From positions 62,001-126,000 of the forward strand of contig NZ_JPKG01000024.1 in NCBI RefSeq assembly GCF_000735605.1: DNA of 64,000 nt, in the 5' to 3' direction. The notes beneath the pieces were generated by a model. The model had not been told where the DNA came from. It saw only the letters and a list, made by a program, of their open reading frames with translations, and made no database searches. Below, in pieces: positions 27,219-49,449 of the stretch. The translations under genes and the position numbers were made by a program. This stretch comes from Allobosea sp. LC85. Its GTDB lineage: Bacteria > Pseudomonadota > Alphaproteobacteria > Rhizobiales > Beijerinckiaceae. Position 1 is the first letter of the stretch. Each line of letters begins with the position of its first letter.

Positions 27219-27228
27219 GGTGCGGCCG

Positions 27229-28400: not shown

Positions 28401-28491
28401 CCACCCCGGAGGCTGACCGACGACACGAACCGCCTTCGCAACAAGAGGCCGCCAATGCCCGAACGATAACAACCGTCCAGTGGAGGAAACG

Positions 28492-30231
<1,740 letters not shown>

Positions 30232-31775: not shown

Positions 31776-31807
31776 TGCCGGTAGTTTGAGCAGACCAGAG
31801 CACCAAG

Positions 31808-31827
31808 CCCGTGTAAAGGAACACGGG
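31808..31827. promoter_or_regulatory. Perfect 7-bp inverted repeat in the aminotransferase/IclR promoter region
   Basis: CCCGTGT (31808-31814) and ACACGGG (31821-31827) are separated by 6 bases. It overlaps the left part of the 31-bp shared motif and may be a second half-site for the IclR protein or a separate operator. Confidence 0.4.
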
Positions 31828-31843
31828 TTTCGTCTTGCGGAAT
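31813..31843. promoter_or_regulatory. Candidate IclR-regulon operator, copy 1
   Basis: One of four copies of a 31-bp motif of the form GTCAA-N9-GTTTC-N7-G(A/G)AA(C/T); here the first word is GTAAA and the last GGAAT. It sits midway between the divergent aminotransferase and IclR genes, where an autoregulated IclR site is expected. The other copies are at 37879, 43390 and 46290. Confidence 0.6.
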
Positions 31844-31895
31844 TCCCCGGGACCCGCTATGCGAGGCCTCGCGACAGCGAGAATGCGGGGCGATC

Positions 31896-32687
31896 ATGCC
31901 GAAGAAATCGGGCAACCCTTACGTCGTGCAGCCCGTGATGAAGGCGCTCAAGGTGCTGGAATTCGTGGCGCGCCATGGGCACGAGATCGCGCTCACGACC
32001 GTCGGACGAGAGCTGCGGATTCCGAAGACGACGACCTTCCGCTACCTGCAAACGCTGATGGAGGCCGGATTCGTCAGCCACAACCGCGAGACCGACAAAT
32101 ACAATCTCGGGCCTCTGCTGCGCTCGATCGCGCGTGCCGATGCGAGCTTCAGCAAGATCCGTCAGCTCGCGCGCCCGGCGATGGTCGAGCTGATGAACGA
32201 ATTCAATGAGACCGTGAACCTCGCGGTGAAGGGCAACGGCACGATCGTCTATATCGACCTCATCGAGGCCAATCGCTCGCTGCGCATGCAGGCGCGGATC
32301 GGCGACAGCCATCCGATGCATTCGACAGCACTGGGCAAGGCGATCCTCGCCTTTCTTCCCGAAGCCGAAAAGCTGCGCCAGCTCGATCTGCCCTTGACCG
32401 AGCGAACCGGGCGCACGTTGCTCGAGCGCGAAGAGATCGAGCGCCAGCTTCGACAGGTCGCCAAGCTCGGCTACGCGACGGAAATCGGCGAGAACGAAGA
32501 CGGGGCGATGTGCGTCGGCGTGCCGATCTTCGACGACAATCACTACCCTGTGGCGGCACTCAGCATCTCGGCACCGCTGATGCGAATGCCGCGGCCACTC
32601 GCGGCGAAGGCGGGAACGCGACTGCGCGAGGTCGCCGCGCACATCTCCAGCCATCTCGGTTCGCAGGACCCCATCACTTCCCCCTGA
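31896..32687 (+). CDS. IclR-family transcriptional regulator
   Basis: A 263-residue protein. The winged HTH (about 15-75, MKALKVLEFVARHGHEIALTTVGRELRIPKTTTFRYLQTLMEAGFV) is followed by an IclR effector domain containing MHSTALGKAILAFLPE and GYATEIGENEDGAMCVGVPIFD, both family hallmarks. It is divergent from the aminotransferase gene. The shared 31-bp motif in its own promoter and at three more promoters nearby makes it the likely regulator of the peptide/MlrC genes. The ligand is unknown. Confidence 0.9.
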   Translation: MPKKSGNPYVVQPVMKALKVLEFVARHGHEIALTTVGRELRIPKTTTFRYLQTLMEAGFVSHNRETDKYNLGPLLRSIARADASFSKIRQLARPAMVELMNEFNETVNLAVKGNGTIVYIDLIEANRSLRMQARIGDSHPMHSTALGKAILAFLPEAEKLRQLDLPLTERTGRTLLEREEIERQLRQVAKLGYATEIGENEDGAMCVGVPIFDDNHYPVAALSISAPLMRMPRPLAAKAGTRLREVAAHISSHLGSQDPITSP

Positions 32688-32752
32688 CAGGCGTGGCCGG
32701 GCGGAGCCCTGCAAGCGCAGGCCCGCGCGGGACCTCGCGCTCCGGGGCGAGG

Positions 32753-33700
32753 TCAATGATATTCGATGCGTGGATCGATCCACGCATAAAGTACGTCGAT
32801 GATCAGGTTGACCAGCATATAGCCGACCAGGATCACCATGATGCAGCCTTGGATCAGCGGGTAGTCGCGGGTGCTGATCGCCTGGATCACCAAGCGTCCC
32901 AGCCCCGGATAGGTGAAGACGGCCTCCGTCACCACCGCACCGCCGATGAAATTCGCCATCATCAAGCCGACGATCGTGACAAAGGGCAGCAACGCGTTGC
33001 GCATGATGTGCAGGCCGACGACGCGGCTTTCGGGCAGCCCCTTGGCCCGCGCCGTGCGGACATAGTCCTGCTTCGCCTCACCGATCAACGACGCGCGCAG
33101 GAACCGCGCGAAGATGCCGGAGACATAGATGCCCAGCGTCAGCGCCGGCAGGATGAGACTGCGTAGCGCATCCATCGGCGACTCCCAGAACGGCACGTAG
33201 CGCGAGGCGGACGGCAGCCAGTGGAGCTCGACGGCGAAGAGCAGGATCAGCAGGATGCCAAGCCAAAACGTCGGCACACCCAGTGCCAGCGCGCTCCACC
33301 CGCTGAGCAGGCGGTCGAGCCAGGAATTGGGCCGCACGGCGCTGGCAACCGCGACAGGTATGCCGACGAGCAACGCCACCAGAATCGCGGCGACCGCCAG
33401 TTGCAGCGTCGCTGGCAATCTCTCGCCGATCAACGCAAGAACCGGCTGGCGACTGTGCAGCGAGAGGCCGAAATCGCCGCGCAGCGCCTGGCCGAGCCAG
33501 TCGAGATACTGGATCAGCATCGGCCGATCGAGGCCATAGCGCGCGATGGTGGCCGCAATCTCCTCCGGCGAGGCGTTCTCACCAACAAGCACCGCGACGG
33601 GGCCGCCCGGCACCGCGTAGATCATCGCGAATATGGCGAAGGACGCGAGAACCAGCACCGGCAGCATATGCAACAGGCGGCGCAGCAGATAGCCCGTCAT
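32753..33700 (-). CDS. Opp/Dpp-type ABC permease (DppB-like), system 1
   Basis: A 315-residue permease with the DppB opening (LLRRLLHMLPVLVLASFAIFAMIYAVPGGP), six membrane segments and an EAA loop (DYVRTARAKGLPESRVVGLHIMRNALLPFVT). It overlaps the DppC-type gene as ATGA. This transport unit encodes no ATPase of its own. Confidence 0.9.
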   Translation of the reverse strand: MTGYLLRRLLHMLPVLVLASFAIFAMIYAVPGGPVAVLVGENASPEEIAATIARYGLDRPMLIQYLDWLGQALRGDFGLSLHSRQPVLALIGERLPATLQLAVAAILVALLVGIPVAVASAVRPNSWLDRLLSGWSALALGVPTFWLGILLILLFAVELHWLPSASRYVPFWESPMDALRSLILPALTLGIYVSGIFARFLRASLIGEAKQDYVRTARAKGLPESRVVGLHIMRNALLPFVTIVGLMMANFIGGAVVTEAVFTYPGLGRLVIQAISTRDYPLIQGCIMVILVGYMLVNLIIDVLYAWIDPRIEYH

Positions 33701-34566
33701 CGGCCCCTGCGCTCCGGAACGCCGGCTTCATGCCTGTCGAGCAGCGCGGTCAGGGCACGGCCGATCGTGTCGAAGGAGAGGATCGTCAGCGTCAGCACGA
33801 GACCGGGCAGCACGGCGTAGGTCGGCGCCTCGTGCAGATAGGATTTCCCTGTTCGCAGCATTTCGCCCCAGCTCGGCGTCGGCGGCGGTACTCCGACCCC
33901 GAGAAAAGCAAGCGCGGCCTCCAGCAGGATCGCGACCGAGGCGAGCACGATCGCCTGCACGACCAGCGGGCTCAGCGCGTTGGGCAGGATGGTGTGGAAC
34001 ATGATGTAGGACGAACCGCCGCCGAAGCTGCGCACCGCCGTGACGAAATCGAGCTGGCGCAGGGCCATGACCTGCGCCCGCGCGATCCGCGCGAAATTCG
34101 GTATCCCCGCGATGCCGACCGCGACCAGGGCTGCTGCCTGACTGCGACCGAGCACGGCGATCAGCGCCATGGCGAACAGGATGTTCGGCAGCGCCAGCAG
34201 CACATCGATGCAGCGCATCAGCACCGAGTCGCGCCAATCACCGAAAAAGCCGGCGACGAGCCCAATCGGCACCCCGATCAGCGCAGCGCTGACGACGGCA
34301 CCGAAGGCGGTGACGAGTGAGGTTCGCGCGCCATAGACCACGCGCGCCAGGATATCCCGCCCGAGTTCGTCGGTACCAAACCAGGCGGAAGCCGAGGGCG
34401 GCATCAGCGAATCCGCCAGATTCTGCGTCAGCGGGTCCAGGGGGAGCACGTCTGCAAACACGGCCGCCAGCGCCACCAGCAGCAGGAAGGCGAAACTGAA
34501 TGACGTGCCGCGACGGGCGGAAAGCCGGCGCAGCACGTGCAGGGCCGATCCCAACGCCGCGCTCAT
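33697..34566 (-). CDS. Opp/Dpp-type ABC permease (DppC-like), system 1
   Basis: A 289-residue permease with DppC motifs MPPSASAWFGTDELGRDILARVVYGARTSL and an EAA loop around RAQVMALRQLDFVTAVRSFGGGSSYIMFHTILPN. It pairs with the DppB-like subunit downstream. Confidence 0.9.
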   Translation of the reverse strand: MSAALGSALHVLRRLSARRGTSFSFAFLLLVALAAVFADVLPLDPLTQNLADSLMPPSASAWFGTDELGRDILARVVYGARTSLVTAFGAVVSAALIGVPIGLVAGFFGDWRDSVLMRCIDVLLALPNILFAMALIAVLGRSQAAALVAVGIAGIPNFARIARAQVMALRQLDFVTAVRSFGGGSSYIMFHTILPNALSPLVVQAIVLASVAILLEAALAFLGVGVPPPTPSWGEMLRTGKSYLHEAPTYAVLPGLVLTLTILSFDTIGRALTALLDRHEAGVPERRGR

Positions 34567-34645
34567 CGCATGGCGCCACGCATCCGAGGGCTGCGTGACG
34601 CCGCAATTGCGGCCGGGCGATGGCGTCCCGCCTCGCGGCTCCGCA

Positions 34646-36187
34646 TTACTTGAACCCGATCGTCCGCGCGACGAAGAGGTTGTCGATCTCGAGTGTCACG
34701 CCGCCAACCTTGTCGGAGGCGACAATCAGGCCGACCTCATAGGAATTGGTCGGTATTGCGAAGGCCTCGTCCACCAGCACCTTGTTCAGGTTGTCATAGG
34801 ATGCCTTGACCTCCGCCGCTCCGCCCGAGGCGCCATCGACCTTGGCAATCGCCGCGACATAGGCCGGATGCGGATGCGGATCCTTGAGGATCGGATTCTG
34901 CGAGGTCCGGTAGATGGAGTTCGTCGTCACCCGCGAGGGAAACTTCTGGACGTTGCCGACCGCGCCGAAGACCGCGGCGAAATCGCCGCCCAGCAGCGCA
35001 CTGACGAATTCGGCCCCCTGGCGGATATCGAGTTCGATCGGAATCCCGACCTTGCCCAGCGAGGCCTGCACGATCTGGCTGATCTGGACCGAGGCCTCGT
35101 CGCTGCCATTGACCAGCATCTTCCAGTCTTTCATCTCGGCCGCCGAGAGACCGGATGCTGCGAGCAAGGCCTTGGCCTTGTCGAGATCGTAGGCGTGGGC
35201 CTTGGTATAGCTGGCGTCGAAGGCCGGGCTTGCCGGCGCCCAGGGCTGCGCGACGACCTCGCCCATGCCGGCATAGCCGACGCGCAGGATGCCCGCACGA
35301 TCCATCAGGTGGTTGAAGGCCTGGCGGTAGGATTTGTTGCGGAATGGGCCACGCGTCGAGTTGATACGGAAGACCTGCACGAGCTTGCCGGGCCCGGAAA
35401 AGACCTGGTAGCCGGCGCTCTTGAGGCGCACGGCACTGCGCGAGGAGCCGTTATAGATGATGTCGACGGCGCCCGACTCGAGCGCCGCGCTCGCCGCCGC
35501 ATCCTCGCTGAAAACAGTGAAGACGAGGTCCTGCACGATCGGCTGCTTCTCGCGCCAGTATTTCGGGTTGGCCTTGAGACGCAGCCCCTGTCCGACGGCG
35601 CGGCTCACCAAGGTGAAGGGGCCTGTGCCGGCCGGAACCGTCTCGACTGTGTCGATGCCCTTGGCTTCGATCGGGATCAGGAACTGCAGCAGATCGAGGA
35701 TCTGCCGCTCGGGAACCGGGGCCTTGAAGTTGATCACCACGGTCCGGTCATCGGGCGCCGACCAGTCCTTGACGATCGACATGGTGGAGAAGACGTTCTT
35801 GCCGCGCTTGGGGTCGGCTCCCTTCTGCAGCGTCGCCAGCACGGAATCGGCCTTGAGGGGCGTTCCGCTGTGGAAGGTCACGCCGTCGCGCAGCTTCACG
35901 CTGACCGAGGTCTTGTCGGGCGCGATCGTCCACTCGGTCGCCAGGCTCGGCTCCGGCTTTCCCTCGGGCGTGTACTCGATCAGGCTGTCATAGAGGTTCT
36001 TGATGACATGGAAGTTGACGGTCGAGAGCTGCTGGGGATCGTAATTGGCGAGCTCGCTCAGCACTGCGACACGCAAGGTGCCGCCCTTCAGTTGCTGGGC
36101 GATGGCCGGGAGTGACATCGCCAAGGGGGCTGCTGCAGCCAGGGCTATGCCCGCCATGCAGAATTGACGTCGCGATACGGTGGTCAT
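34646..36187 (-). CDS. Peptide-type ABC substrate-binding protein (DppA/OppA-like), system 1
   Basis: A 513-residue family 5 binding protein with a Tat-like leader (VSRRQFCMAGIALAAAAPLAMSLPAIA) and the typical GGTLRVAVLSELANYDPQQLST opening. ATG at 36187 is preferred to a GTG three codons earlier. It lies 34 bases downstream of an MlrC gene in the same unit, implying that the imported compound is that enzyme's substrate (inference). Confidence 0.9.
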   Translation of the reverse strand: MTTVSRRQFCMAGIALAAAAPLAMSLPAIAQQLKGGTLRVAVLSELANYDPQQLSTVNFHVIKNLYDSLIEYTPEGKPEPSLATEWTIAPDKTSVSVKLRDGVTFHSGTPLKADSVLATLQKGADPKRGKNVFSTMSIVKDWSAPDDRTVVINFKAPVPERQILDLLQFLIPIEAKGIDTVETVPAGTGPFTLVSRAVGQGLRLKANPKYWREKQPIVQDLVFTVFSEDAAASAALESGAVDIIYNGSSRSAVRLKSAGYQVFSGPGKLVQVFRINSTRGPFRNKSYRQAFNHLMDRAGILRVGYAGMGEVVAQPWAPASPAFDASYTKAHAYDLDKAKALLAASGLSAAEMKDWKMLVNGSDEASVQISQIVQASLGKVGIPIELDIRQGAEFVSALLGGDFAAVFGAVGNVQKFPSRVTTNSIYRTSQNPILKDPHPHPAYVAAIAKVDGASGGAAEVKASYDNLNKVLVDEAFAIPTNSYEVGLIVASDKVGGVTLEIDNLFVARTIGFK

Positions 36188-36221
36188 CCGGCACACTCCC
36201 CTTTTTTGGTTGGTCTTCGTG

Positions 36222-37730
36222 TCAGCTCGTCCCCGCGCCGGGCTGGGTCGAATGCGCCCGCCAGTCGCTTATTGTTTCAAGTGGATAGACCGGGCGCGGA
36301 ATCCGCGCCCAAGGCAAGGTGAAGACGTCCGACTGCCCAGGCCCGCGCGTGTCGGCGCGAATGACCTGCGAGGAGATCGGCGCGAAATACTGGAAATTCG
36401 ACGCCGTCTTGAGGACGGCCATCTTGTAGTCAGCGAGATTGACGCCGAAGGCTTCGTAGACGCCCGGGACATTGCCCGCGACACCGCGCAGTTCGCTGAT
36501 CAGGAGTGTCACCGGCCCGACGTCGAAAACGACGACCCGGCCCATATCGACCTCGTTCTGATGGTTGTAGATCAGCGGTACGGGCCCGCCTCCGATACGC
36601 CGGACCGTGCCGGTGACCTCGAGCGGCGTAAAGAAAGCCGGCGCCGCATCGCCCCCCAGCGGGAGGGTCACCCGTGCGCCCTCGCCGGCCGCGACCAGCG
36701 TCGCGACGGCCTGCGGCGAGATCAGCGGAATCAGCGCGCGGCTGCCGATGCCGAGCCTGAGGATCGCTTCCAGGATCAGGTTGCTGTCGCCGGCAGAGCC
36801 GCCGAAGACAGTATCTCCGGTGTCGCTGAGCACAACCATGCCGCGCTCGGCAGCATCGGCCTTGCGCACCGCCTCGTCGACCGAGACCGCCTCGCGGACC
36901 TGGAAATCATCGCGCATCGACCAGGCGAGGTCGGCGAGCTCATCCGCCAGGGTCTCGGCCAGGACCTGGTCGCCATCCGTGACGACGATCGTCGACCAGC
37001 CACCCTCGGCGACATCGAGCCAGGGCTGCATCGGATAGTTCGACGCCTGCAGCACGCGCTCATCAACCTCGAGCTCGCGAGCCCGATCGAACCAGCGCTT
37101 CATCGGGCCCTTCGACGTCAGGAACTGCTCTTGATGCGAAAGCAGCGGAATCTTGCGCCAGGCCATCACCGGCCGCCGCTTCTCCACGAGAATCCTGAGC
37201 AACAGGGCCGTCCCGATCTTGCCGGTATCGAAGACATCGTGCGGTTGCGTGCGGTGCCCGACGATCGCCGTGCAATTGGCCATGATCTTGCGGGTGATGT
37301 TGGCGTGGTGATCGAGACCAAGCAGGATCGGGACATCGGGCCCGAGGATCGAACGGCAGAGCTCGGCCTGCTCGCCTTCGACATCGTCGATTCCTTCGGC
37401 CGCAGCGGCACCGTGAAGCTGCAGGACGAGTCCTTCGATCGGGCCGGCGTCCGCGAGCCCGGTCCGTATCTTGTCCTGGAAGAAGTCGAAGGCTGCGCGC
37501 GTGATCCGGCCGCCCGCGACGCTCCAGGCCCTTATGATCGGGATCGTCTCAACCGAAAGACGGGATTCAGCGACCGCCTTATAGTGACCGCCGATTTGCC
37601 CGATCTCGCCGAACTGACGCGCAATCTCGGCCCCCTCGTACAGGCCGAAAGCCTCGAAATCCGCGAGCGTGGTCGGCACAGGATTGAAGTCGTTCGTTTC
37701 CTGCACGATGTGAATCAAGGCCAGGCGCAC
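36222..37730 (-). CDS. M81-family metallopeptidase, MlrC-like, paralogue 1
   Basis: A 502-residue MlrC-type protein with N-terminal M81 domain (ALIHIVQETNDFNP opening) and C-terminal MlrC domain (VVLSDTGDTVFGGSAGDSNLILEAILR and VTLLISELRG). The metal-site pattern Asp140-x-His142 with a further His164 22 residues on (HDV) is present. MlrC of microcystin degraders cleaves linear peptides at an Adda residue; most family members have unknown peptide or amide substrates. GTG at 37730 follows GGGAGGGA, so the longer open frame to 37796 is rejected. First gene of a unit with transport system 1. Confidence 0.87.
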   Translation of the reverse strand: MRLALIHIVQETNDFNPVPTTLADFEAFGLYEGAEIARQFGEIGQIGGHYKAVAESRLSVETIPIIRAWSVAGGRITRAAFDFFQDKIRTGLADAGPIEGLVLQLHGAAAAEGIDDVEGEQAELCRSILGPDVPILLGLDHHANITRKIMANCTAIVGHRTQPHDVFDTGKIGTALLLRILVEKRRPVMAWRKIPLLSHQEQFLTSKGPMKRWFDRARELEVDERVLQASNYPMQPWLDVAEGGWSTIVVTDGDQVLAETLADELADLAWSMRDDFQVREAVSVDEAVRKADAAERGMVVLSDTGDTVFGGSAGDSNLILEAILRLGIGSRALIPLISPQAVATLVAAGEGARVTLPLGGDAAPAFFTPLEVTGTVRRIGGGPVPLIYNHQNEVDMGRVVVFDVGPVTLLISELRGVAGNVPGVYEAFGVNLADYKMAVLKTASNFQYFAPISSQVIRADTRGPGQSDVFTLPWARIPRPVYPLETISDWRAHSTQPGAGTS

Positions 37731-37878
37731 AGATTCCCTCCCGGAAAACGACAATTCGCCGGCCGAAACGGCAGGCGATCTCGATGGGCCGTACACCTCA
37801 TTATTGAGCGCTCACGCCAGTTGAACCTGTCGCAATGCGCGAAAACACCGGAAAAACGTACTGATGGCGCAATTTCGG

Positions 37879-37909
37879 GTCAAGGATTCCTTGTTTCGCA
37901 AGAAGAAAC
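37879..37909. promoter_or_regulatory. Candidate IclR-regulon operator, copy 2
   Basis: Full-match copy of the 31-bp motif: GTCAA, then GTTTC at 37893 and GAAAC at 37905, forming a 5-base inverted repeat with a 7-base spacer. It lies in the 190-base gap about 150 bases upstream of the MlrC paralogue 1 start. Confidence 0.65.
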
Positions 37910-37920
37910 AGCTTTGATCT

Positions 37921-38955
37921 TCACAGGATGGGCAGACCTGTATGCCCGACCTGGCCTGGCTCATGAAGCAGCGCCTCTCCGCGCGGCCAGTAGCGGCACG
38001 AAACGCCGTGGCCGGCCCCGACTTCGTGCCACTCCGCAGTGTTGCTGCTGGCATGATCGTCGCCATGGACGCAGCCACCTCCATCGCCTTCGAGAAAACG
38101 CAGATCCGGGGGCGCGCGCCGGAGCCGCTCGCGCTGGCGGACGGGATCGGGCACCGGCACCGCATCCAGCAGCACGCGCGTATAAGGGTGGGCGGGGCTG
38201 TCGTAGACTTGGGCGGCACTGCCCATTTCGACGACCCGGCCGCGATACATGACCGCCACGCGATGGGCGACCTCGCGAACGATCGCGAGATCATGCGCGA
38301 TGAACAGGTAGGACAGACCGAGCTTCTCCTGCAGCGACTGCAGCAGGGCCACGATCTGCGCCTGGGTGCGGACATCGAGCGCCGAGACCGGCTCGTCGCA
38401 CACGATGAAATCCGGATTGACCGCCAGTGCCCGGGCGATGACGACGCGCTGGCGCTGCCCGCCAGAGAACTCGTGCGGATAGCGCTGCATCATCCCCGGG
38501 TCGAGGCTGACCAGGTCCAGAAGCTCCGCAACACGCTCCTGCAGCCGAGCGGGAGGCACCGAGCGATGGACCTGAAGTGGCTCGCGCAGAATCTGTCCGA
38601 TCGTCATGCGCGGATGCAAACTGGAATACGGATTCTGCAGCACGAACTGCATATGGCGTCGCATCTGCCGCAATCGCGCGGCCGGCATCGTGGTCAGTTC
38701 CTCGCCGAGAAGCTGCACCGACCCGGAATGCGCCTGCTGCAACTGCAGGATGGCCCGGCCTGTCGTCGTCTTGCCCGAACCGGACTGGCCGACGAGCCCC
38801 AGCGTCTGGCCGGGCGCGATATCGAAGGACACCCGATCGACCGCCTTCAGCGCCTTGCCGCCCCCCCTGCCGGGAAAGCGCACCGACAGATCGCGGACCT
38901 GAAGCAGTGGCCGCGGCAGCATCTCGGCGATTGCAGCGGGATCGTGAGCGGTCAT
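37921..38955 (-). CDS. Opp/Dpp-type ABC ATPase (DppF-like)
   Basis: A 344-residue ATPase with Walker A GQSGSGKT, signature FSGGQRQR, Walker B FIVCDEPVSALD and the C-terminal oligopeptide extension (SPAHPYTRVLLDAVPVPDP). The C-terminus ends in a His/Gly-rich tail that has only two Cys and so may lack the usual Fe-S-like cysteines. It is the last gene of system 2 and probably also energises system 1. Confidence 0.9.
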   Translation of the reverse strand: MTAHDPAAIAEMLPRPLLQVRDLSVRFPGRGGGKALKAVDRVSFDIAPGQTLGLVGQSGSGKTTTGRAILQLQQAHSGSVQLLGEELTTMPAARLRQMRRHMQFVLQNPYSSLHPRMTIGQILREPLQVHRSVPPARLQERVAELLDLVSLDPGMMQRYPHEFSGGQRQRVVIARALAVNPDFIVCDEPVSALDVRTQAQIVALLQSLQEKLGLSYLFIAHDLAIVREVAHRVAVMYRGRVVEMGSAAQVYDSPAHPYTRVLLDAVPVPDPVRQRERLRRAPPDLRFLEGDGGGCVHGDDHASSNTAEWHEVGAGHGVSCRYWPRGEALLHEPGQVGHTGLPIL

Positions 38956-39770
38956 CTGATCTGCCCGGCGCTCTGGAGACGCGGCACCGCATCGAGCAGG
39001 GCTCGCGTATAGACGTGTTGCGGTGAGGCGAAGACGCTTTCGATCGCTCCGGCTTCGACGATCTCGCCGCGATACATGACATTGACCCGGTCGACCATGC
39101 CGGCCACGACGCCGAAATCATGGGTGATCAGCATCAATGCCATGCCGCGCTCCTCCCTCAGCCGCAGCAGCAGGCGCAGGATCTGCGCCTGTACGGTGAC
39201 ATCGAGCGCCGTCGTCGGCTCATCGGCGATCAGCAGGTCCGGCTCGCAGGAGATGGCCATCGCGATCATGACGCGTTGGCGCATCCCGCCCGAGAACTGG
39301 TGCGGATGATCGTCGAGGCGCCGCGCCGCATCGGGTATTCCGACCTGGGCGAGCAGGTCGATGCAGCGTTCGCGCGCCGCCTTGCCGGACAGGCCGGTGT
39401 GGTGGCGCAGCATGTCGGTCATCTGGGCGGCGATGCTCAGCACCGGATTGAGCGACGTCATCGGGTCCTGGAAGACCATGGCGATACGCCGTCCGCGCAG
39501 GGCGCGCATTTCGACCTCGCTCTTCGCCAGGATGTCCTGCCCCATGAAGCTGACCTCGCCGCCAAGCGCGACCGAGGTGCCTTCGGGCGTGAGCCGCATC
39601 AGCGCCTTGGCCGTGACGCTCTTGCCGCAGCCGGATTCGCCAACGAATCCGACCGCCTCATCGGCGCCGATGTCGAAGGAGATGCCGCGTACGGCCTGGA
39701 TGACCTCCCGGCGCGTGGTGACGCTGGCGGAGAGGTTGCGGACGCTGAGGAGCGGGCCAGTGCGGGTCAT
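38952..39770 (-). CDS. Opp/Dpp-type ABC ATPase (DppD-like)
   Basis: A 272-residue ATPase with Walker A GESGCGKS, signature FSGGMRQR and Walker [16 protein letters not shown] at 39770 overlaps the permease stop as ATGA; the open frame beyond it is antisense to nothing real and is discarded. The protein is shorter than usual DppD (about 325) because the C-terminal oligopeptide extension stops soon after [13 protein letters not shown]. Confidence 0.9.
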
Positions 39771-40645
39771 CGCACGCTCCCGACGTCGAGCACGTCGCGC
39801 AGGCCGTTGGCCAGGACGATGAAGGTCAGCGTCGCGAACACGATTGCGGCGGCGGGTCCGATCACGGTCAGCGGCGCCAGTTCCATGAATTGTCGCGCTT
39901 CCGACAGCATGCCACCCCAGTTCGGATCCGGCGGTGGCGGGCCCAGCCCGAGGAAGGACAGGGCCGTGACGGTGAAAATCGTCTGGGACAGGGTCAGGCT
40001 GGTCGCGACAAGGATCGGCGAGACCACGAGCGGCAGGATATGGCGGAGAACCAGCCGGAATTCGCTCATGCCGATGCTGCGCGCCGCTTCGACATGGTCC
40101 CATTGCTTCACGCTGAGCACGGGTGCGCGCACGACCCTGGCCATTGCCGGCGTATACACGATGGCGATGGTGAGGATCAGATTGGGAATGGTCGGCCCCA
40201 GGGCCGCAACGACCGCAATCGCGAGAAGGAGGACCGGGAAGGCGAAGACCACGTCCAGAATGCGCATGATCGCGTCATCGATCACGCCGCCGAGATAGCC
40301 GGAGAGCAACCCAAGCACGAGCCCTCCGAGGAGCGCAATGAGCACAGCAGTGATCGTGATCAGCAGCGTCGTGCGGCCGCCGACGATCAGCCGGCTGAGG
40401 ACATCGCGGCCGATCGAGTCCGTACCGAGCCAGTGGCGCGCGCTGGCTCCGGCAAGGGAGTCGGGCGAGGTCGCGGAAGGATCGAACGGCACAAGGAAGG
40501 GCGCGAAGATCGTGACGATCAACATCGTCGCCAGCATCGCCAGCCCAATCCCAAGCAGCAGGCCGCCTTGCGTGATCCGCGGTGCCTTGACCGTGCGCGC
40601 GTCAAGAGCCAGTTTCTGAACTCCCTCCTGCGACATGGCCCTCAC
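39767..40645 (-). CDS. Opp/Dpp-type ABC permease (DppC-like), system 2
   Basis: A 292-residue permease with ARHWLGTDSIGRDVLSRLIVGGRTTL and an EAA loop near WDHVEAARSIGMSEFRLVLRHILPLV. GTG at 40645 overlaps the upstream stop; ATG at 40636 is an alternative start. Confidence 0.89.
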   Translation of the reverse strand: MRAMSQEGVQKLALDARTVKAPRITQGGLLLGIGLAMLATMLIVTIFAPFLVPFDPSATSPDSLAGASARHWLGTDSIGRDVLSRLIVGGRTTLLITITAVLIALLGGLVLGLLSGYLGGVIDDAIMRILDVVFAFPVLLLAIAVVAALGPTIPNLILTIAIVYTPAMARVVRAPVLSVKQWDHVEAARSIGMSEFRLVLRHILPLVVSPILVATSLTLSQTIFTVTALSFLGLGPPPPDPNWGGMLSEARQFMELAPLTVIGPAAAIVFATLTFIVLANGLRDVLDVGSVR

Positions 40646-41583
40646 AACTTCACCCGCGCATCGACCCGCGCATAGGCGATGTCGATCATCGTATTGACCA
40701 CGACCACGATAGCCGACGCCGTCAGCACGATGGCCTGAATCACCGGGTAATCGCGGCTGTTGATCGAATCGAAGAGATATTGGCCCATCCCGGGAATCGC
40801 GAAGATGGTCTCGACCAAGATGCTGCCGCCGAGCAGCGCTGCGATCTTGAGCCCGGTTGCAGTAATGACCGGCGTCAAGGCGTTGCGGACGAGATAGTCG
40901 CGCAGGATCCTGCCCGGAGGCAGTCCCTTAGCGCGGGCAACCATGACGAAGTCCTGGTTGGCCACCTCGAGCACGGCAGCGCGGGTGTTCTCGGAAATCG
41001 TGACGGACACCGCCAGCGCCAGGGCGAGCGCCGGCAACAGCAGGCTACCGATATTGGCGAGCGGATCCTCGAGAAACGGCGTGTAGCCGAAGATCGAGAT
41101 CTGCGGGAAATAAAGGCCGAAAAGCAGCACGATCAGCGTCGCGACCACATAGTTCGGCACGGCCAGCATCAGCCCATTGTAGAGCCGGACGATCCAGTCG
41201 ATCGCGCCCCGCATCCGCGCCGCGGCAAGCCCGGTCGCTACTCCCATCACCATGGAGATGATCGCCGCGACCAGCGTCAGCTGGAAGGTCACCGCGAGCC
41301 GATCGAGCAATTCCGGCCGAACCGGCTGGCGCGTCACGAAGGACGTGCCGAGATCACCGAGGAGGGCATGCCCGAGCCAGACCCAATATTGCGCCAGCAG
41401 CGGCCGATCGAGCCCAAGGTCCTGACGGATCGCCGCCAGAACCTCCGGTGCGACGCTCTGCGAACCGGCTGCGGCAATGGCGAAATCGCCCGGCAGGGCC
41501 CGCATCATCGCGAAGGCGATGAAGGAAACCGCCAGCAGGATGACCAGCATCCAGGCGAGGCGACCAAGGACAAAGCGCGTCAT
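40642..41583 (-). CDS. Opp/Dpp-type ABC permease (DppB-like), system 2
   Basis: A 313-residue permease, opening FVLGRLAWMLVILLAVSFIAFAMMRALPGD and EAA loop DFVMVARAKGLPPGRILRDYLVRNALTPVI. It has six membrane segments and starts 37 bases after the binding-protein gene. Confidence 0.9.
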   Translation of the reverse strand: MTRFVLGRLAWMLVILLAVSFIAFAMMRALPGDFAIAAAGSQSVAPEVLAAIRQDLGLDRPLLAQYWVWLGHALLGDLGTSFVTRQPVRPELLDRLAVTFQLTLVAAIISMVMGVATGLAAARMRGAIDWIVRLYNGLMLAVPNYVVATLIVLLFGLYFPQISIFGYTPFLEDPLANIGSLLLPALALALAVSVTISENTRAAVLEVANQDFVMVARAKGLPPGRILRDYLVRNALTPVITATGLKIAALLGGSILVETIFAIPGMGQYLFDSINSRDYPVIQAIVLTASAIVVVVNTMIDIAYARVDARVKL

Positions 41584-41620
41584 CGGCCGGCGCCCGGCGT
41601 GGAGAGAGCGAACGGGGGAG

Positions 41621-43219
41621 CTATTTTTTCAGCCATGCGGTGCGCACGAAGGAGCGGATATTCGCAGCGATCGGGACGTAATCCTTGACGTAGTTCCACC
41701 AGATCTCCCAGCGCAGAGGGTACTGGTAAACCTGGATGATGTAGGCTTGGTCGGCGATATGGCGCTGGATCGCCATGTTCTTGGCCGCCCGCCGGCCGAG
41801 GTCGAGTTCGGCGCGGGCCTCCAGAATCATTCTGTCGAGCTCGGCATCGTTCGATCCCGTACCCTTGCCGGTCGCGCTGTCCGACTTGATGTACTGAAGG
41901 GTGGCGTCCGAATCCGGCGTCCAGGACAGAGCGACCGAGAGCAGCGTCGGCCACCTACCAGTATTCCACATGGTCAAGAGCGGCGCCGTCTCCATCGGCG
42001 TCAGCTTGACCGTGATTCCCGCGACCTGCCATTGCTGCTGCAGGATCTGCGCGCAGGCCACGTCGAGCGGGTTGGCTGCGACGATGATGTAATTGCCGAG
42101 ATCGATGCCCTCGGGATAGCCGGCCTCGGCCAGCAGGGCCTTCGCCGCGGCCGGATCATGCTTGTAATAGGGTAGGTCCCCGGTGCCGTCATAACCGCCG
42201 ACCTGGCTTTCCGGAATCATCGCGCCGACCTTGCCCGAACCGCCCAGGATCGTGTCTAGGCAGGCCTTGCGGTCGGTCGCCAGGCTGAGCGCGCGGCGCA
42301 CCCTGACATCGTTCAGCGGCTTGGCCTTCATGTTCAGCCAGACCGGAAAGGTCCGCGAGGTCTGGCCGGGAGCAGAGACCAGATTGGGGGAGGTCCGCGC
42401 AATCGCGGCCGCGACTTTCGGGTCCTTCAGCCAGGTCATGTCGATTGCGCGCGACCGCAGCGCCGAGGTCAGCGTGGCCTGGTCCTTGTAGAACTTGAAC
42501 ACCACCCTGGAGAGATGCGGCTGCCCCTTCTCATAGTAGCCCGCATGCGCGGTCAGCGAGAATTGCAGGTTCGGCTGATAGGCCTCGAACACGAAGGGGC
42601 CGGTCCCGACGGGCTGGGTGTTGAGGTTCTCGACACCAGCCGGGACGATCGCGCCGTTGGGGCTGGTCGCCAGGTTGCTCAGGAAGGCCGCATCCGTCGC
42701 GTTCAACTGGAATTTGACGGTGTAGGGGTCGATGACAGTGACCGCATCGACGCTGGAATAGAACGCCCGCAAGCGGCTGCCGGAAGCCGGGTTCAGGATG
42801 CGATCGAAGGTATGCTTCACATCATTGGCCGTGAAATCCTGGCCATTATGGAATTTCACGCCCTGCCGCAGCCGGAAGACATAGGTCTTGGGATCGGGCT
42901 GATCGTAGCTCAGCGCGAGATCGGGCTCGATCTTCATCTGCGCGGACCAGCGCAGCAGCCCCGTATAGATCAGACTGGTGAAATCATAGGAGGAGAACGC
43001 CGTAAGCGTGACCGGATCCAACCCGATCGGGTCGGCATCGGCGCCGATGGTCAGCGTTCCACCCGAAACCGGCGTCTCGGCCGCAGCATCGCCAGCCATG
43101 ATCGCGGGCGAAAGGGCCATGGCACTGCTGGCAAGCACAAGCCGCAGCAGGCTGCGGCGTGACAGCTCCTCTGCCATCTCCGGCTCGGGGGCGATCATCG
43201 GGAATGACGGAGCCTTCAC
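41621..43219 (-). CDS. Peptide-type ABC substrate-binding protein (DppA/OppA-like), system 2
   Basis: About 532 residues with a Tat-like leader (LSRRSLLRLVLASSAMALSPAIMAGDAAAE) and the family 5 opening GGTLTIGADADPIGLDPVTLTAFSSYDF. GTG at 43219 is chosen because GGAGGG lies 7 bases upstream; ATGs at 43198 and 43177 are alternatives. It is only distantly similar to the system 1 binding protein, so the two importers probably differ in ligand while sharing ATPases. Confidence 0.87.
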   Translation of the reverse strand: MKAPSFPMIAPEPEMAEELSRRSLLRLVLASSAMALSPAIMAGDAAAETPVSGGTLTIGADADPIGLDPVTLTAFSSYDFTSLIYTGLLRWSAQMKIEPDLALSYDQPDPKTYVFRLRQGVKFHNGQDFTANDVKHTFDRILNPASGSRLRAFYSSVDAVTVIDPYTVKFQLNATDAAFLSNLATSPNGAIVPAGVENLNTQPVGTGPFVFEAYQPNLQFSLTAHAGYYEKGQPHLSRVVFKFYKDQATLTSALRSRAIDMTWLKDPKVAAAIARTSPNLVSAPGQTSRTFPVWLNMKAKPLNDVRVRRALSLATDRKACLDTILGGSGKVGAMIPESQVGGYDGTGDLPYYKHDPAAAKALLAEAGYPEGIDLGNYIIVAANPLDVACAQILQQQWQVAGITVKLTPMETAPLLTMWNTGRWPTLLSVALSWTPDSDATLQYIKSDSATGKGTGSNDAELDRMILEARAELDLGRRAAKNMAIQRHIADQAYIIQVYQYPLRWEIWWNYVKDYVPIAANIRSFVRTAWLKK

Positions 43220-43389
43220 GAACGATCCCTCCACACATGATCAGACGACATGATTTCGGCCTGAAACCTGCAGGACGCTGATCTGGCATCAGCGCCTACC
43301 GCCTGAAGCGAGACGCCTGTCGCGCTCGCCGATTCCCGCCCGCAGATCATCCCTCTCGCCAATGGAGGCTAGGAGTCGTCAGAATTCAC

Positions 43390-43420
43390 GTCAAGGATTC
43401 CTGGTTTCGCAGCAAGAAAC
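43390..43420. promoter_or_regulatory. Candidate IclR-regulon operator, copy 3
   Basis: Full-match copy: GTCAA at 43390, GTTTC at 43404 and GAAAC at 43416. It differs from copy 2 at only four positions over 31 bases. It lies in the 222-base gap upstream of transport system 2. Confidence 0.65.
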
Positions 43421-43441
43421 ACGGCTTCCATCCGGGGCATA

Positions 43442-44752
43442 TCAGAAGAACGTCCTGACGCCGCCCCGCACGTCGTAATCGTCGTCGACCAGCATCAGCA
43501 GAGCCCATTTATCGAAGGTCGTGCAGGGATGGCCAATGCCGAAGCCGACCATGTCTCCAACCTGAAGCGGGCTGTCTTCCGGCGTGCCGAGATGGCAATG
43601 CTGGTCATTGAGCGCGAGAACCGTGTGTCCTGCCGGCATCGGCTCGGGCCTGCTCATGCCCTGACGGAACCAGCGCAGCGCAACCGGCATGCCTGCATCG
43701 TAGCTGATGTCGCGTTTGCCAAGGGTGAGCAGGCTATGTCCCCGCTCGGGCCGTGACTGGACATAAGCCCAGACCTCCAGCGCCGGTTCGAGGCCGCCCG
43801 CCGGCAGGGTCAGGCTGGTTTCCATGACGATGCGCCGGAATGCATTGGCATAGGCTGTTGAATCATGGGTCAGGTAACATCCCGAGCGCAGGACTTTCAC
43901 GATGGATCGCGCAAAGGCCGCCGCGTTCAGCTTCTCCCCGACACGGTCGAACAGGGAAGTTCCGCCGGCGCTCAGCACCATCGGATCGGGACCGAGCAAT
44001 CCCTCCGCCTCGGCCGCCAGCGCCACTTCGATCATGTTGTCGAGCAGGCGGTCGGCGCCGGCGGCAGTGCTATGCAGCCCCTCGAAGCATTCGAAGCCAG
44101 CGAGTTGCAGCCCAGCAGCCCCGCTGATGGCATGGGCGATCGCCATCGCCTCGTCCCGGCTGCGCGCGCCCGTCCGGCCGCCCATGAAACCGATCTCGAC
44201 GAGGATACGCAGCGGATTAACTGATGGCGGCGGCGCACGCCGGGCCGCCTCAGCCAGCGATGCAACACCTTCAACGCTGTCGGCCAGGCAATACAGTGTA
44301 AAGCCGTCATCCATCACGGCATCGAAGCAGGCGGCGATCTCCTGGCGTCCAACGGGTTGGTTGGCGAGGATCACGCGTCTGACGCCGAAATGGCGGCATA
44401 CCTGAAGCTGCTGGATCGTCGCCACAGTGATGGCCCAGGCGCCGTCTGCGATCTGCAGGTCGAAGAGCTGCGGCGCCATGGTGGTCTTGCCATGGGGGGC
44501 GATCACAAGGCCGTTCTCCGCCGTGAATGCGCTCATCCAGACGCTGTTCCGCTTCAACACGCTCTCGCGGATCACCGCAAGCGGGAGCGGCAGGTCGCCG
44601 GTCAGGACATTCCAGCCTTGCATCCCGATATCGCCGAGGCGCAGGCCTGATGTGCCTGGCGGCAGACCCTTGCTCAGCCCATCGAGGCACTGATCGTCGA
44701 TATCGGCGAGTGACAGACGCGGCAGCGCGCGGCCGGAGGCAGTCAAAGCCAT
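43442..44752 (-). CDS. D-threonine aldolase / D-serine dehydratase-like PLP enzyme
   Basis: A 436-residue fold-type III (alanine-racemase barrel) PLP protein. The PLP lysine is Lys89 in APHGKTTMAP. The C-terminal metal pair is His408 and Cys410 (GHPCTTFDKW), as in zinc-dependent D-serine dehydratases and D-threonine aldolases. It would act on a D- or beta-hydroxy amino acid released from the imported peptide (inference). It overlaps the MlrC paralogue 2 gene by 10 bases, so both are made from one mRNA. Confidence 0.85.
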   Translation of the reverse strand: MALTASGRALPRLSLADIDDQCLDGLSKGLPPGTSGLRLGDIGMQGWNVLTGDLPLPLAVIRESVLKRNSVWMSAFTAENGLVIAPHGKTTMAPQLFDLQIADGAWAITVATIQQLQVCRHFGVRRVILANQPVGRQEIAACFDAVMDDGFTLYCLADSVEGVASLAEAARRAPPPSVNPLRILVEIGFMGGRTGARSRDEAMAIAHAISGAAGLQLAGFECFEGLHSTAAGADRLLDNMIEVALAAEAEGLLGPDPMVLSAGGTSLFDRVGEKLNAAAFARSIVKVLRSGCYLTHDSTAYANAFRRIVMETSLTLPAGGLEPALEVWAYVQSRPERGHSLLTLGKRDISYDAGMPVALRWFRQGMSRPEPMPAGHTVLALNDQHCHLGTPEDSPLQVGDMVGFGIGHPCTTFDKWALLMLVDDDYDVRGGVRTFF

Positions 44753-46206
44753 GGGTTCGGGTCCAGCGGCGAGAATGGGCGGCGGATCTTGGTGTAGGGA
44801 ATCTTGCTGGCCTCCGGTGGGTATGGGCCGCCGCTGTCGAGATAGAGAACGCTGGCTGCGATCGGCGCAAAGGCCGCATGGAAGTGGTTCGAGGATTTGA
44901 CGACCACGACGCGCTTTGCAGCCAGATCAATCCCGAGATTGGTGAACACCGGCGGACTGAAGGTCTGGGCGCGGGTCGATGCGAGAACGATATCGAGGTT
45001 GCCGATACGGATCGCAGCAGCCGCACCGAGCGAAACCCAGCTTTGTGCGAAGGGCACCACAAGGTCGGGCGTCGTGCCCGTGACCAGCACTGTCGCATCG
45101 ATCGGCCGGCCCGACGACGGCGCCGCCTTCCCCGCGAAGCGCAGCGAAATTTCGGCTCCGACCCCGGCGGCTCGGCACAGGCTCACGGCGACGGGGTCCC
45201 AGAGAGCTCCGATCGCGGCCGGCACCTCCGGCCGCCTGAGCAGCGCCTCGACCATCACCGAGGAATCGCCAGCGACGCCGCCGCCGGGATTGTCCCAGCG
45301 ATCGGCGAGGATGACCGGACGGCCATCCTGCGCCAGTGCCAGCGCCGCCTCGATACCCTCATCAGGCTTGTAATGCTTCGGCATCGCGCCGCTGGGGCCC
45401 CAGCGCAGGATTTCCAGCCCCAGTGTCTTGGCGAGCGCCGCCGCCTTGTCCGCGTCGCCATCGGCAATGACGAGCACTTTCGTGCCGACATCCGCCACAT
45501 CGGCCGCCTGGAAGCCGTGAGCGACCGAAATGCTCAGGATACCGTCCCGACCTTCCATCGCCTTGATACGGTCGACGAAACTGCGGCCAGGTTCGCGGCT
45601 TGTCATGAAGCTTGCAATTCCGCGGCAGTCGAAGACAGCGCTGACAGGTTTCACCTGCGCGCGCGCTGCCCGCAGGCAGAGCTCGAGCAGGTCCTCGGCC
45701 CGATCGAGGAAGTCCGTATGCGGAAACTCCTTGAAGGCAACGATGACGTCGGCGGCATCGACCATCTCCTTGGTAAGATGGCAATGCATGTCGAGCTCTG
45801 CCCCGATGATGCAACCGGGGCCGGCGAGCGCGCGGGCGCGCGCCATCAGATCGCCCTCGCAATCGTCGTAGCCGCGCGCGACCATTGCGCCATGCAGGCC
45901 CAGCAGCACGACATCGACGGGAAGCGCGGCATGAAGCTGGCTAAGAATTTCATCACGCAGGCTTTCATAGCCGTCGCGCGAAACGAGCCCTGCAGGCTCC
46001 GCCCATGTCGCGGTGCCCTCGATCAGGGTGTACCCCTCGCTGGCGGCCCGGCGGCGGGCGGCGACGATCGGCGCCGAGCACAGCGTCGGCGTTTCCGGGT
46101 GCGTACCAGGCGGACAGTAGAAGGCCGCTTCGAAAGCGCTGCGATCGACGAAGAGCGGCGCGAAGGTGTTGGTTTCAGTCGCCAGCGATGCAACGAAGAC
46201 GCGCAT
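44743..46206 (-). CDS. M81-family metallopeptidase, MlrC-like, paralogue 2
   Basis: A 487-residue MlrC-type protein opening VFVASLATETNTFAP, with metal-site pattern Asp139-x-His141 and His163 (FPHTD), and the C-terminal domain motif ILADRWDNPGGGVAGDSSVMVEALLRR. It is coupled to the D-threonine-aldolase-like gene, which suggests sequential action. It is divergent from paralogue 3 with a shared operator-like motif between them. Confidence 0.87.
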   Translation of the reverse strand: MRVFVASLATETNTFAPLFVDRSAFEAAFYCPPGTHPETPTLCSAPIVAARRRAASEGYTLIEGTATWAEPAGLVSRDGYESLRDEILSQLHAALPVDVVLLGLHGAMVARGYDDCEGDLMARARALAGPGCIIGAELDMHCHLTKEMVDAADVIVAFKEFPHTDFLDRAEDLLELCLRAARAQVKPVSAVFDCRGIASFMTSREPGRSFVDRIKAMEGRDGILSISVAHGFQAADVADVGTKVLVIADGDADKAAALAKTLGLEILRWGPSGAMPKHYKPDEGIEAALALAQDGRPVILADRWDNPGGGVAGDSSVMVEALLRRPEVPAAIGALWDPVAVSLCRAAGVGAEISLRFAGKAAPSSGRPIDATVLVTGTTPDLVVPFAQSWVSLGAAAAIRIGNLDIVLASTRAQTFSPPVFTNLGIDLAAKRVVVVKSSNHFHAAFAPIAASVLYLDSGGPYPPEASKIPYTKIRRPFSPLDPNPWL

Positions 46207-46289
46207 GCAGATAGCCCCCGCTCGGCGACACGAAGCAACCGCATCGTCCCGCTCTCCCAGCAGGATCTAACGGGAGGTCGCTTCCACCT

Positions 46290-46320
46290 GTCAAAGCAAA
46301 GTCGTTTCTCCAGACGGAAT
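46290..46320. promoter_or_regulatory. Candidate IclR-regulon operator, copy 4
   Basis: GTCAA at 46290, GTTTC at 46304 and GGAAT at 46316, with the same spacings as the other three copies. It sits in the 190-base divergent region between two MlrC genes, 77 bases from the plus-strand start and 84 bases from the minus-strand start. Confidence 0.55.
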
Positions 46321-46396
46321 AATGGCGCCTTGATCCGAAACGATCCGGCGTCCGAAATGGCGCCACGCCGCCACCTGTCGAGATTGGGTCCCCAGC

Positions 46397-49291: not shown

Positions 49292-49406
49292 GGTAGCCCT
49301 TTCCAGGAAAGCGACCCGCATGTCCCACAGCCAAAGGATCTCCGCCACTTTCAAACAATGAGGCAAGTCGGCGCCGATCATTTGGATCGACCGGCTGGGC
49401 GAAGCG

Positions 49407-49429
49407 GAAGAGGTTCGGCGCACCTCTTC
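49407..49429. promoter_or_regulatory. Perfect 8-bp inverted repeat upstream of the dehydrogenase operon
   Basis: GAAGAGGT (49407-49414) and ACCTCTTC (49422-49429) flank a 7-base spacer, ending 20 bases before the ATG of the first gene. In the 158-base LysR-divergent region this is the best operator candidate, although LysR boxes are usually placed further upstream. Confidence 0.45.
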
Positions 49430-49449
49430 TGGGAAACAAGATCGCCGTC

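What the first reader, a model, noticed from the sequence alone, without database searches (positions are those of the whole stretch)
31813..46320. Four copies of a 31-bp motif tie the MlrC/peptide-transport genes into one probable IclR regulon
Seen directly: GTCAA-N9-GTTTC-N7-G(A/G)AA(C/T) occurs at 31813, 37879, 43390 and 46290 with identical spacing (copy 1 has GTAAA). Copies 2 and 3 are nearly identical and hold a GTTTC/GAAAC inverted repeat. Each copy is in one of the four main intergenic promoter regions of this block, and one is in the IclR promoter. Inference: the IclR protein at 31896 binds all four.
Basis: partly seen in the sequence, partly recalled or inferred. Interest (0 to 1): 0.8.

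Follow-up and report, generated by a model that had tools for sequence, protein, structure and literature searches.

The report
Conserved IclR operators phased to promoters
A bacterium of the genus Bosea appears to control its genes for taking up and breaking down peptides through one regulator, whose DNA binding site sits at an almost invariable distance from the start signals of the genes, which suggests that the regulator touches RNA polymerase to switch them on.

Summary
The four-copy motif is real and conserved. The sites recur in 22 further Bosea loci (site 3 wherever its operon is beside them) and, with gene order reshuffled, beside related IclR genes in Devosia, Microvirga, Acuticoccus, Rhodobacteraceae and Rhodospirillales. 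The one-regulon reading is strongly supported. But the 31-bp unit is misread: GTCAA is not operator. On the other strand it is TTGAC, the promoter's -35 box. The operator is the 17-bp palindrome GTTYC-N7-GRAAY (P1), close to the published IclR 'GTT-11-AAC' type, 9 bp upstream of the -35. Copy 4 serves two divergent promoters, so there are five target promoters. Copy 1 faces the aminotransferase promoter and also covers the probable -35 of iclR. A weaker second palindrome (P2) lies 21 bp downstream in many promoters, with the -35 hexamer as its core. Promoters without P2 keep the P1-to-(-35) gap, which argues for activation from P1; P2 may repress or stabilise. In relatives two target genes found on other contigs carry the operator too. 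Binding by IclR, the sign of control, the effector and the substrate are inferred, not shown.

The parts
31827..31843 (-). Operator P1, site 1 (ATTCC-N7-GAAAC), between aminotransferase and iclR
   Evidence: conserved in 23 of 23 Bosea loci
31806..31822 (-). Second palindrome P2, site 1 (box 3 GTTCC perfect, box 4 weak), core = -35
31812..31817 (-). -35 TTTACA of the aminotransferase promoter; predicted -10 TCTGCT at 31789-31794
   Evidence: alignment; inferred
31835..31840 (+). Predicted -35 TTGCGG of iclR, lying inside P1; predicted -10 TATGCG at 31858-31863 (17-bp spacer)
   Evidence: TTGCGG in 22 of 23 loci; inferred
31896..32687 (+). IclR-family regulator, 263 aa
   Evidence: PF09339 + PF01614; 26 of 67 Bosea genomes
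30447..31775 (-). Class III aminotransferase, GSAM-like (real start probably GTG 31760, inferred)
37893..37909 (-). Operator P1, site 2
37872..37888 (-). P2, site 2 (AATCC-N7-GAAAT); its core holds -35 TTGACC 37878-37883; predicted -10 TACGTT 37855-37860
   Evidence: -10 read by eye
32753..37796 (-). Target operon: M81 (MlrC1) 36222-37796, SBP_bac_5 (SBP1) 34646-36196, OppC 33697-34566, OppB 32753-33700
   Evidence: operon inferred from order
43404..43420 (-). Operator P1, site 3
43383..43399 (-). P2, site 3 (AATCC-N7-GAATT); its core holds -35 TTGACG 43389-43394; predicted -10 TAGCCT 43366-43371
   Evidence: -10 inferred
37921..43234 (-). Target operon: SBP2 41621-43234, OppB 40642-41583, OppC 39767-40645, OppD 38952-40103, OppF 37921-38955
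   Evidence: operon inferred from order
46304..46320 (+). Operator P1, site 4, shared by two divergent promoters
46289..46294 (-). -35 TTGACA of the MlrC2-DSD operon; predicted -10 TTAGAT 46265-46270
   Evidence: inferred
46330..46335 (+). -35 TTGATC of MlrC3, 9 bp from P1 on the other side; predicted -10 CGAAAT 46353-46358; half-site GAAAC 46337-46341
   Evidence: inferred
43442..46206 (-). Target operon: M81 (MlrC2) 44743-46206, D-serine-deaminase-like PLP enzyme (DSD) 43442-44752
   Evidence: operon inferred from order
46397..47911 (+). Target gene: M81 (MlrC3)

Best explanation
This is the regulon of one IclR-family regulator, used mainly as an activator. A dimer binds the palindrome P1 (GTTYC-N7-GRAAY), whose centre is near -53, and from there touches RNA polymerase at a -35 hexamer that starts 9 bp away (P1, gap and -35-like hexamer are shown by sequence; binding, contact and activation are inferred). 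Five transcription units are controlled here: aminotransferase; MlrC1-SBP1-OppCB; SBP2-OppBCDF; MlrC2-DSD; MlrC3. Site 4 works in both directions. At site 1 the same operator covers the probable -35 of iclR, so the regulator should limit its own synthesis while turning on the aminotransferase (inferred). A second, weaker palindrome P2, 21 bp downstream with the -35 as its core, can take a second dimer in some promoters; it probably tunes or blocks the promoter when a tetramer forms (inferred). Physiology: uptake by Opp transporters and breakdown of peptides, perhaps with D- or beta-amino acids, by M81 hydrolases, a D-serine-deaminase-like enzyme and a transaminase (inferred from families only).
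For: Conservation in 23 Bosea loci. Exact hits in 23 of 23 IclR-positive genomes (85 hits, 82 in the cluster) against 1 of 38 IclR-negative congeners. With a P1-N9-TTGNNC pattern 22 of 26 IclR-positive and 0 of 41 IclR-negative Bosea genomes have a hit. A palindrome-only search, which fixed no gap, turned up five unlisted sites; 5 of their 6 promoter sides have TTG exactly 9 bp away, one has 8. A further kind of target, a transporter gene with no match in the window genome at E<=1e-100, carries P1-N9-TTG in 8 of 8 loci, one on another contig than the cluster. In G052 an SBP2 gene lies on another contig and has the site. In 22 non-Bosea IclR loci (21 distinct) TTKAC follows the palindrome at +9 14 times and at any other offset of 0-27 at most twice; the loci without an exact hit have one with 1-2 mismatches. 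P1 matches the half-sites of the published IclR subgroup GTT-11-AAC (PMC8222616). Promoters without P2 keep the 9-bp gap. Precedent: BhcR, an IclR-type activator with a putative palindrome upstream of the -35 (PMC11323563, passages).
Against: No binding or expression data. P2 overlaps the -35, where a bound dimer would be expected to block polymerase, so repression cannot be excluded. The -35 hexamers of the window are near consensus, which activated promoters often are not; the -10 boxes are weak and were picked by eye, and their spacing varies (16-18 bp). Within Bosea the cluster is gained and lost as a block: 26 of 67 genomes have IclR and the same 26 have MlrC2, so co-occurrence alone does not name the binder. 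The non-Bosea loci were chosen by their IclR. The most distant one, L165 (32% identity), has no such site and was left out of the 22. One left-hand site (L059) has an 8-bp gap. The fifth-target promoters have only TTG of the -35. Relaxed to RTTYC-N7-GRAAY-N9-TTGNNC, the own genome gives 5 hits, 2 in the cluster and 3 elsewhere (control 0). Exact hits outside the cluster in IclR-positive genomes remain unexplained in G002 C32 and G018 C17, and with the pattern also in G043 C3 and G049 C2.
Confidence: 0.62

Rival explanations
1. Pure repressor: a tetramer sits on the tandem operators P1 and P2, covers the -35 and is released by the inducer, as described for IclR-family repressors.
For: P2 with the -35 as core stands out in the non-Bosea sites: GRAAY at +33 with 4 or more of 5 in 15 of 20, RTTYC at +21 in 9 of 20, chance about 0.037 each. 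Centre-to-centre 21 bp fits the published tandem spacing of 18-22 bp in 94 IclR groups.
Against: MlrC2 (22 of 23 loci) and the fifth-target promoters (8 of 8), and L156, L162, L163 and L164, lack a good P2 but keep P1 9 bp from the -35 or TTG; a repressor would not need that. The site that is never missing lies upstream of the -35.
Confidence: 0.23
2. Another regulator, not this IclR, binds the palindrome; IclR is only a neighbour.
For: No binding test; the genome has 17 IclR_C matches and some of those loci hold GTTYC-type palindromes; in Bosea the cluster is inherited as a block.
Against: The non-Bosea loci share IclR by construction, but their other genes vary while the site stays; in L187 even the aminotransferase is absent and the site stands in front of an RraA-like and TRAP transporter operon. 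Among the 17 IclR loci of the genome only this one shows the palindrome with TTKAC at 9 bp; L233 has TTATT there. The half-sites are of IclR type. The HTH segment I42-L54 is invariant in 13 Bosea sequences (its role as recognition helix is inferred).
Confidence: 0.07
3. The sites look alike because the promoters are recent duplicates of one another, without a shared regulator.
For: Copies 2 and 3 are nearly identical in the window.
Against: Inner 7 bp, gap and spacers differ between classes while half-sites and -35 stay; conservation reaches loci whose regulators are 39-61% identical.
Confidence: 0.03
4. Chance matches of a loose pattern.
For: With 2 mismatches the genome scan equals its control, 14 against 16.
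Against: Exact pattern 4 against 0 in the genome, and conservation in 23 loci.
Confidence: 0.01

Closest known systems
IclR-family group 1 operators, subgroup GTT-11-AAC (Suvorova and Gelfand 2021, PMC8222616)
   Same: Same half-sites and distance (GTTYC-N7-GRAAC); tandem sites with centres about 21 bp apart are described there for 94 groups
   Different: The parts I read (abstract, sections 4, 13, 14, 15, passages) place sites relative to the translation start and do not describe a fixed phase to the -35 or a -35 as core of the second site. The middle of P1 is mostly not A/T-rich here.
BhcR of Paracoccus denitrificans (PMC11323563, passages)
   Same: IclR-type activator, divergent from its target, putative palindrome upstream of the target's -35; best NCBIfam hit of this regulator
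   Different: 157.9 bits against a cut-off of 350; its targets are the beta-hydroxyaspartate cycle genes; several promoters here
PcaU and PobR (as cited in PMC8222616; that they are activators is recalled)
   Same: IclR proteins with a palindrome plus a further half-site
   Different: Half-sites differ (GTTCG/GTCCG type); 4-hydroxybenzoate and protocatechuate use
Microcystinase MlrC, M81 family (PDB 7YLQ)
   Same: Sequence relative of MlrC2 (387.5 bits)
   Different: NCBIfam microcystinase model scored 126.5 bits against a cut-off of 999 for MlrC1; mlrA and mlrB were not sought and no microcystin role is implied

Membership tests
IclR family regulator | N-terminal HTH_IclR and C-terminal IclR_C domains | tested here: met
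   PF09339 49.2 bits (cut-off 22), PF01614 133.8 bits (cut-off 24)
IclR group 1 operator, GTT-11-AAC | GTTYC-N7-GRAAC half-sites | tested here: met
   class-weighted columns 0-4 and 12-16; copies 1 and 4 of the window end in T instead of C on one side
IclR group 1 operator, GTT-11-AAC | A/T-rich core W3 | tested here: not met
   columns 7 and 9 are C/G-rich, only column 8 is 61% A/T; the outer Y and R of the core are kept
IclR tandem operators | two palindromes with centres 18-22 bp apart | tested here: met
   P2 21 bp from P1; degenerate or absent in several promoters
IclR-type activator | loss of target expression when the gene is deleted | not testable with these tools
   only geometry is known
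IclR-type activator | the protein binds the sites | not testable with these tools
   indirect only
BhcR | passes the NCBIfam BhcR cut-off | tested here: not met
   157.9 against 350 bits
Microcystinase MlrC | passes the NCBIfam MlrC cut-off | tested here: not met
   MlrC1 126.5 against 999 bits; MlrC2 and MlrC3 were not put through NCBIfam

The most novel reading that the evidence does not exclude
A -35-in-operator switch: the same regulator activates as a dimer on P1 and represses as a tetramer on P1 plus P2, because the promoter's own -35 hexamer is the core of P2. The effector that shifts dimer to tetramer would flip each promoter, and promoters without P2 (MlrC2-DSD, the fifth target) would be activated only. 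The architecture would be old, found in groups that the record titles place in at least three alphaproteobacterial orders, and would let one operator drive two divergent promoters.
Probability: 0.27. Interest if true: 0.62.

Novelty: new variant of a known kind. Interest (0 to 1): 0.5.

Why it matters
What makes an IclR protein an activator or a repressor is rarely readable from sequence. Here the gap between operator and -35 is nearly fixed across six kinds of promoter and several bacterial groups, while a second operator on the -35 itself is present in some promoters and absent in others. That is a ready natural series for testing how IclR proteins contact polymerase. It also gives three M81 hydrolases, two peptide transporters, a transaminase and a D-serine-deaminase-like enzyme a common regulator, so their unknown substrate can be sought as the inducer.

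Tried and rejected
Genome scan with 2 mismatches: 14 hits against 16 for the control, no use. Own-genome hits with 1 mismatch outside the cluster (C19, C28, C54; loci L004, L006, L007): none of the 14 window proteins matches beside them at E<=1e-5. C28 lies in front of a gene that I read by eye, with no database search, as a class I fumarate-hydratase-like subunit, and another IclR_C match lies about 2.9 kb away; C54 lies at the end of an open frame. Not counted as regulon. L099 and L121 (two genomes, between an amino-acid-binding-protein-like gene and a divergent PLP-lyase-like gene, by eye) and L124 were left as probable chance (whose output was cut). Reading GTCAAGGATTCCTTG of copy 2 as a palindrome of its own was dropped: not conserved in the other Bosea loci. 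Sequence searches did not name the substrate: best solved relatives are 7YLQ (M81), 3GWQ (D-serine deaminase), GSAM-type and other aminotransferases, and AgaA 6HLX for SBP2. The first IclR alignment had wrong strands for some rows and was replaced. One search read no loci because of a file-name error; one search repeats it. One search used a pattern ending in C by my choice and misses TTGACG promoters. One search gave ten non-Bosea loci; L165 (32% identity, no site) was left out. In one search the non-Bosea set is 20 sites from 18 of the 22 loci; L182, L183, L186 and L191 were left out as near copies, and several of the rest are still close relatives, so the P values are too small. Of the six IclR-negative Bosea genomes with an MlrC paralogue only four had a locus to examine, one cut at a contig end. 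Literature: searches listed no paper on this regulon; PMC8222616 was read in abstract, sections 4, 13, 14, 15 and passages; PMC11323563 in passages only; PMC8042282 and PMC9506587 in the search listing only. The supplementary tables of PMC8222616 were not read (no look-ups allowed) and may list this regulator. Recalled, from no call: the straddling of a -35 by lambda CII, and tandem operators of the repressor TtgV, as analogies that I considered.
Full report
Observation. At full stringency (GTMAA-N9-GTTYC-N7-GRAAY) the 6.56-Mb genome has exactly four hits, all in this block, none for the backwards control. With two mismatches the original pattern is no better than its control (14 against 16), so the case rests on conservation.

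Conservation in the genus. The window lies in a Bosea: of 17 close loci, 11 are from records named Bosea, the others from records named Boseaceae, Rhizobiales or Hyphomicrobiales bacterium. The IclR gene is found in 23 of 101 genomes searched, the own one included, the 22 others at 83-99% identity, and in 26 of 67 genomes of the genus. I fetched the 22 loci and compared them. Site 1 is present in 23 of 23 including the window, site 2 in 23 of 23, site 3 in 15 of the 15 that keep the SBP2-Opp operon beside it, site 4 in 22 of 23 as written. The last one (L059) has the palindrome but 8 bp on its left side.

What the motif is. Read on the minus strand, GTCAA is TTGAC. At sites 1 to 3 and on the left of site 4 it heads a -35-like hexamer (TTTACA, TTGACC, TTGACG, TTGACA in the window), with a plausible -10 at 16 to 18 bp in the orthologues (read by eye). 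The genes that follow on that strand are the aminotransferase, MlrC1-SBP1-OppCB, SBP2-OppBCDF and MlrC2-DSD. The operator proper is the palindrome P1. It matches the half-sites of the published IclR group 1 subgroup GTTYCRYW3RYGRAAC (PMC8222616), but two of the three core columns are C/G-rich.

Two-sided and autoregulated sites. At site 4 a second -35-like hexamer (TTGATC in the window, TTG with variants elsewhere) lies 9 bp from P1 on the plus strand in 23 of 23 loci and leads to MlrC3. At site 1 the half of P1 that faces iclR contains TTGCGG in 22 of 23 loci, with TATGCG or a similar box 17-18 bp on (read by eye). This predicts that binding which helps the aminotransferase hinders iclR.

Targets elsewhere. 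In G052 an SBP2 gene (87% identity over 403 residues) is on another contig (C57, cluster on C76) and has P1, the 9-bp gap and TTGACG; the genes behind it were not read. A search for the palindrome alone found further sites after MlrC3 in four loci, in front of a gene that I read by eye, without a family scan, as an SBP_bac_3-type amino-acid transporter. Of 67 genomes 8 have this gene, all 8 are IclR-positive, and 8 of 8 have P1-N9-TTG with P1 starting 105-111 bp upstream; in one of them (G027) gene and cluster are on different contigs. The window genome has no match to it at E<=1e-100.

Outside the genus. Searches gave 23 non-Bosea loci. I left out L165 (32% identity), which has no such site. 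The other 22 (21 distinct, L162 and L186 being the same contig) have IclR proteins of 39-61% identity and reshuffled gene order. With the offset left free, TTKAC after RTTYC-N7-GRAAY is found 14 times at +9, and 2, 1 and 2 times at +14, +17 and +18, never at the other 24 offsets from 0 to 27. Of the 14, 13 lie beside IclR or a target, in 11 loci. The other 11 loci have the composite with one mismatch (10 loci) or two (L179). In L187 the aminotransferase is missing and the site precedes an RraA-like and TRAP transporter operon, so there the site goes with the regulator and not with a particular enzyme.

Second palindrome. Class-weighted columns show more signal past P1. In 20 non-Bosea sites GRAAY is met at +33 (4 or more of 5) in 15 and RTTYC at +21 in 9, chance about 0.037 each; apart from P1 itself no other offset exceeds 6. 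The sites were chosen by P1 and the TT of the -35, not by these boxes. Together the boxes form P2, whose seven-base core is the -35 hexamer plus one base, and whose centre is 21 bp from that of P1, within the tandem spacing published for IclR proteins. In the window P2 is good at sites 2 and 3, half at site 1 and the right of site 4, absent on the left of site 4.

Mechanism. P2 suggests a tetramer over the -35, hence repression. But promoters without a good P2 (MlrC2 in 22 of 23 loci, the fifth target in 8 of 8, and L156, L162, L163, L164) keep the gap from P1 to the -35 or to TTG. A repressor has no need of that; an activator that touches polymerase does. I therefore take activation from P1 as most likely and P2 as a modifier. 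BhcR, an IclR-type activator, has a putative palindrome upstream of the -35 of its divergent target (PMC11323563, passages).

Specificity. Of 17 IclR_C loci in the genome only this one shows the palindrome with TTKAC at 9 bp. MlrC paralogues in four of the six IclR-negative genomes that have one (L218-L221) show no composite. IclR-negative congeners have one exact hit in 38 genomes, by eye inside a coding frame. With P1-N9-TTGNNC, 22 of 26 IclR-positive and 0 of 41 IclR-negative Bosea genomes have a hit, 29 hits in all against 11 for the control. Against: in the own genome the looser RTTYC-N7-GRAAY-N9-TTGNNC has 5 hits, of which 3 are outside the cluster and unexplained, and four exact hits in other IclR-positive genomes are unexplained too (G002 C32, G018 C17; G043 C3, G049 C2).

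Limits. Nothing here shows binding, the direction of control, the effector or the substrate. Genomes are related and counts are not independent. Within Bosea the regulator and MlrC2 are found in the same 26 genomes, so association there is partly block inheritance; the target genes on other contigs and the reshuffled loci are the more independent evidence.

Noticed in passing
window 32753-37796: The MlrC1-SBP1-OppCB operon has no ATPase genes, while relatives such as L157, L158, L162 and L163 have OppD and OppF in the matching operon. Eight of 23 Bosea loci also lack the second Opp operon nearby, so their ATPases must come from elsewhere.
   Followed up: partly
L006, own genome C28:71897-71927: One-mismatch site with TTGAGC at 9 bp, in front of a fumarate-hydratase-like gene (read by eye) and about 2.9 kb from another IclR_C match (L241).
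   Followed up: partly
L224 (G101 C1:1516893-1517675): The IclR orthologue of G101 contains an internal TGA although operators are present in that genome.
   Followed up: no
window 48407-50607: A LysR-type regulator gene and a divergent FAD-dependent oxidoreductase (DAO) gene border the cluster.
   Followed up: no
window 27211-30231: ORFs 27211-28104 and 28480-30231 on the + strand have no Pfam match at 1e-8; which of the overlapping frames are genes was not settled.
   Followed up: no
L187 5609-9477: Beside an IclR relative of 48% identity the same composite site stands before an RraA-like and TRAP transporter operon, so the architecture may be wider than the peptide regulon.
   Followed up: partly
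L188 3999-9493: Beside an IclR relative of 42% identity the composite (TTGACA at 9 bp, good P2) precedes an aminotransferase, an M81-like gene, a UxuA/TIM-barrel gene and a GMC oxidoreductase gene.
   Followed up: no
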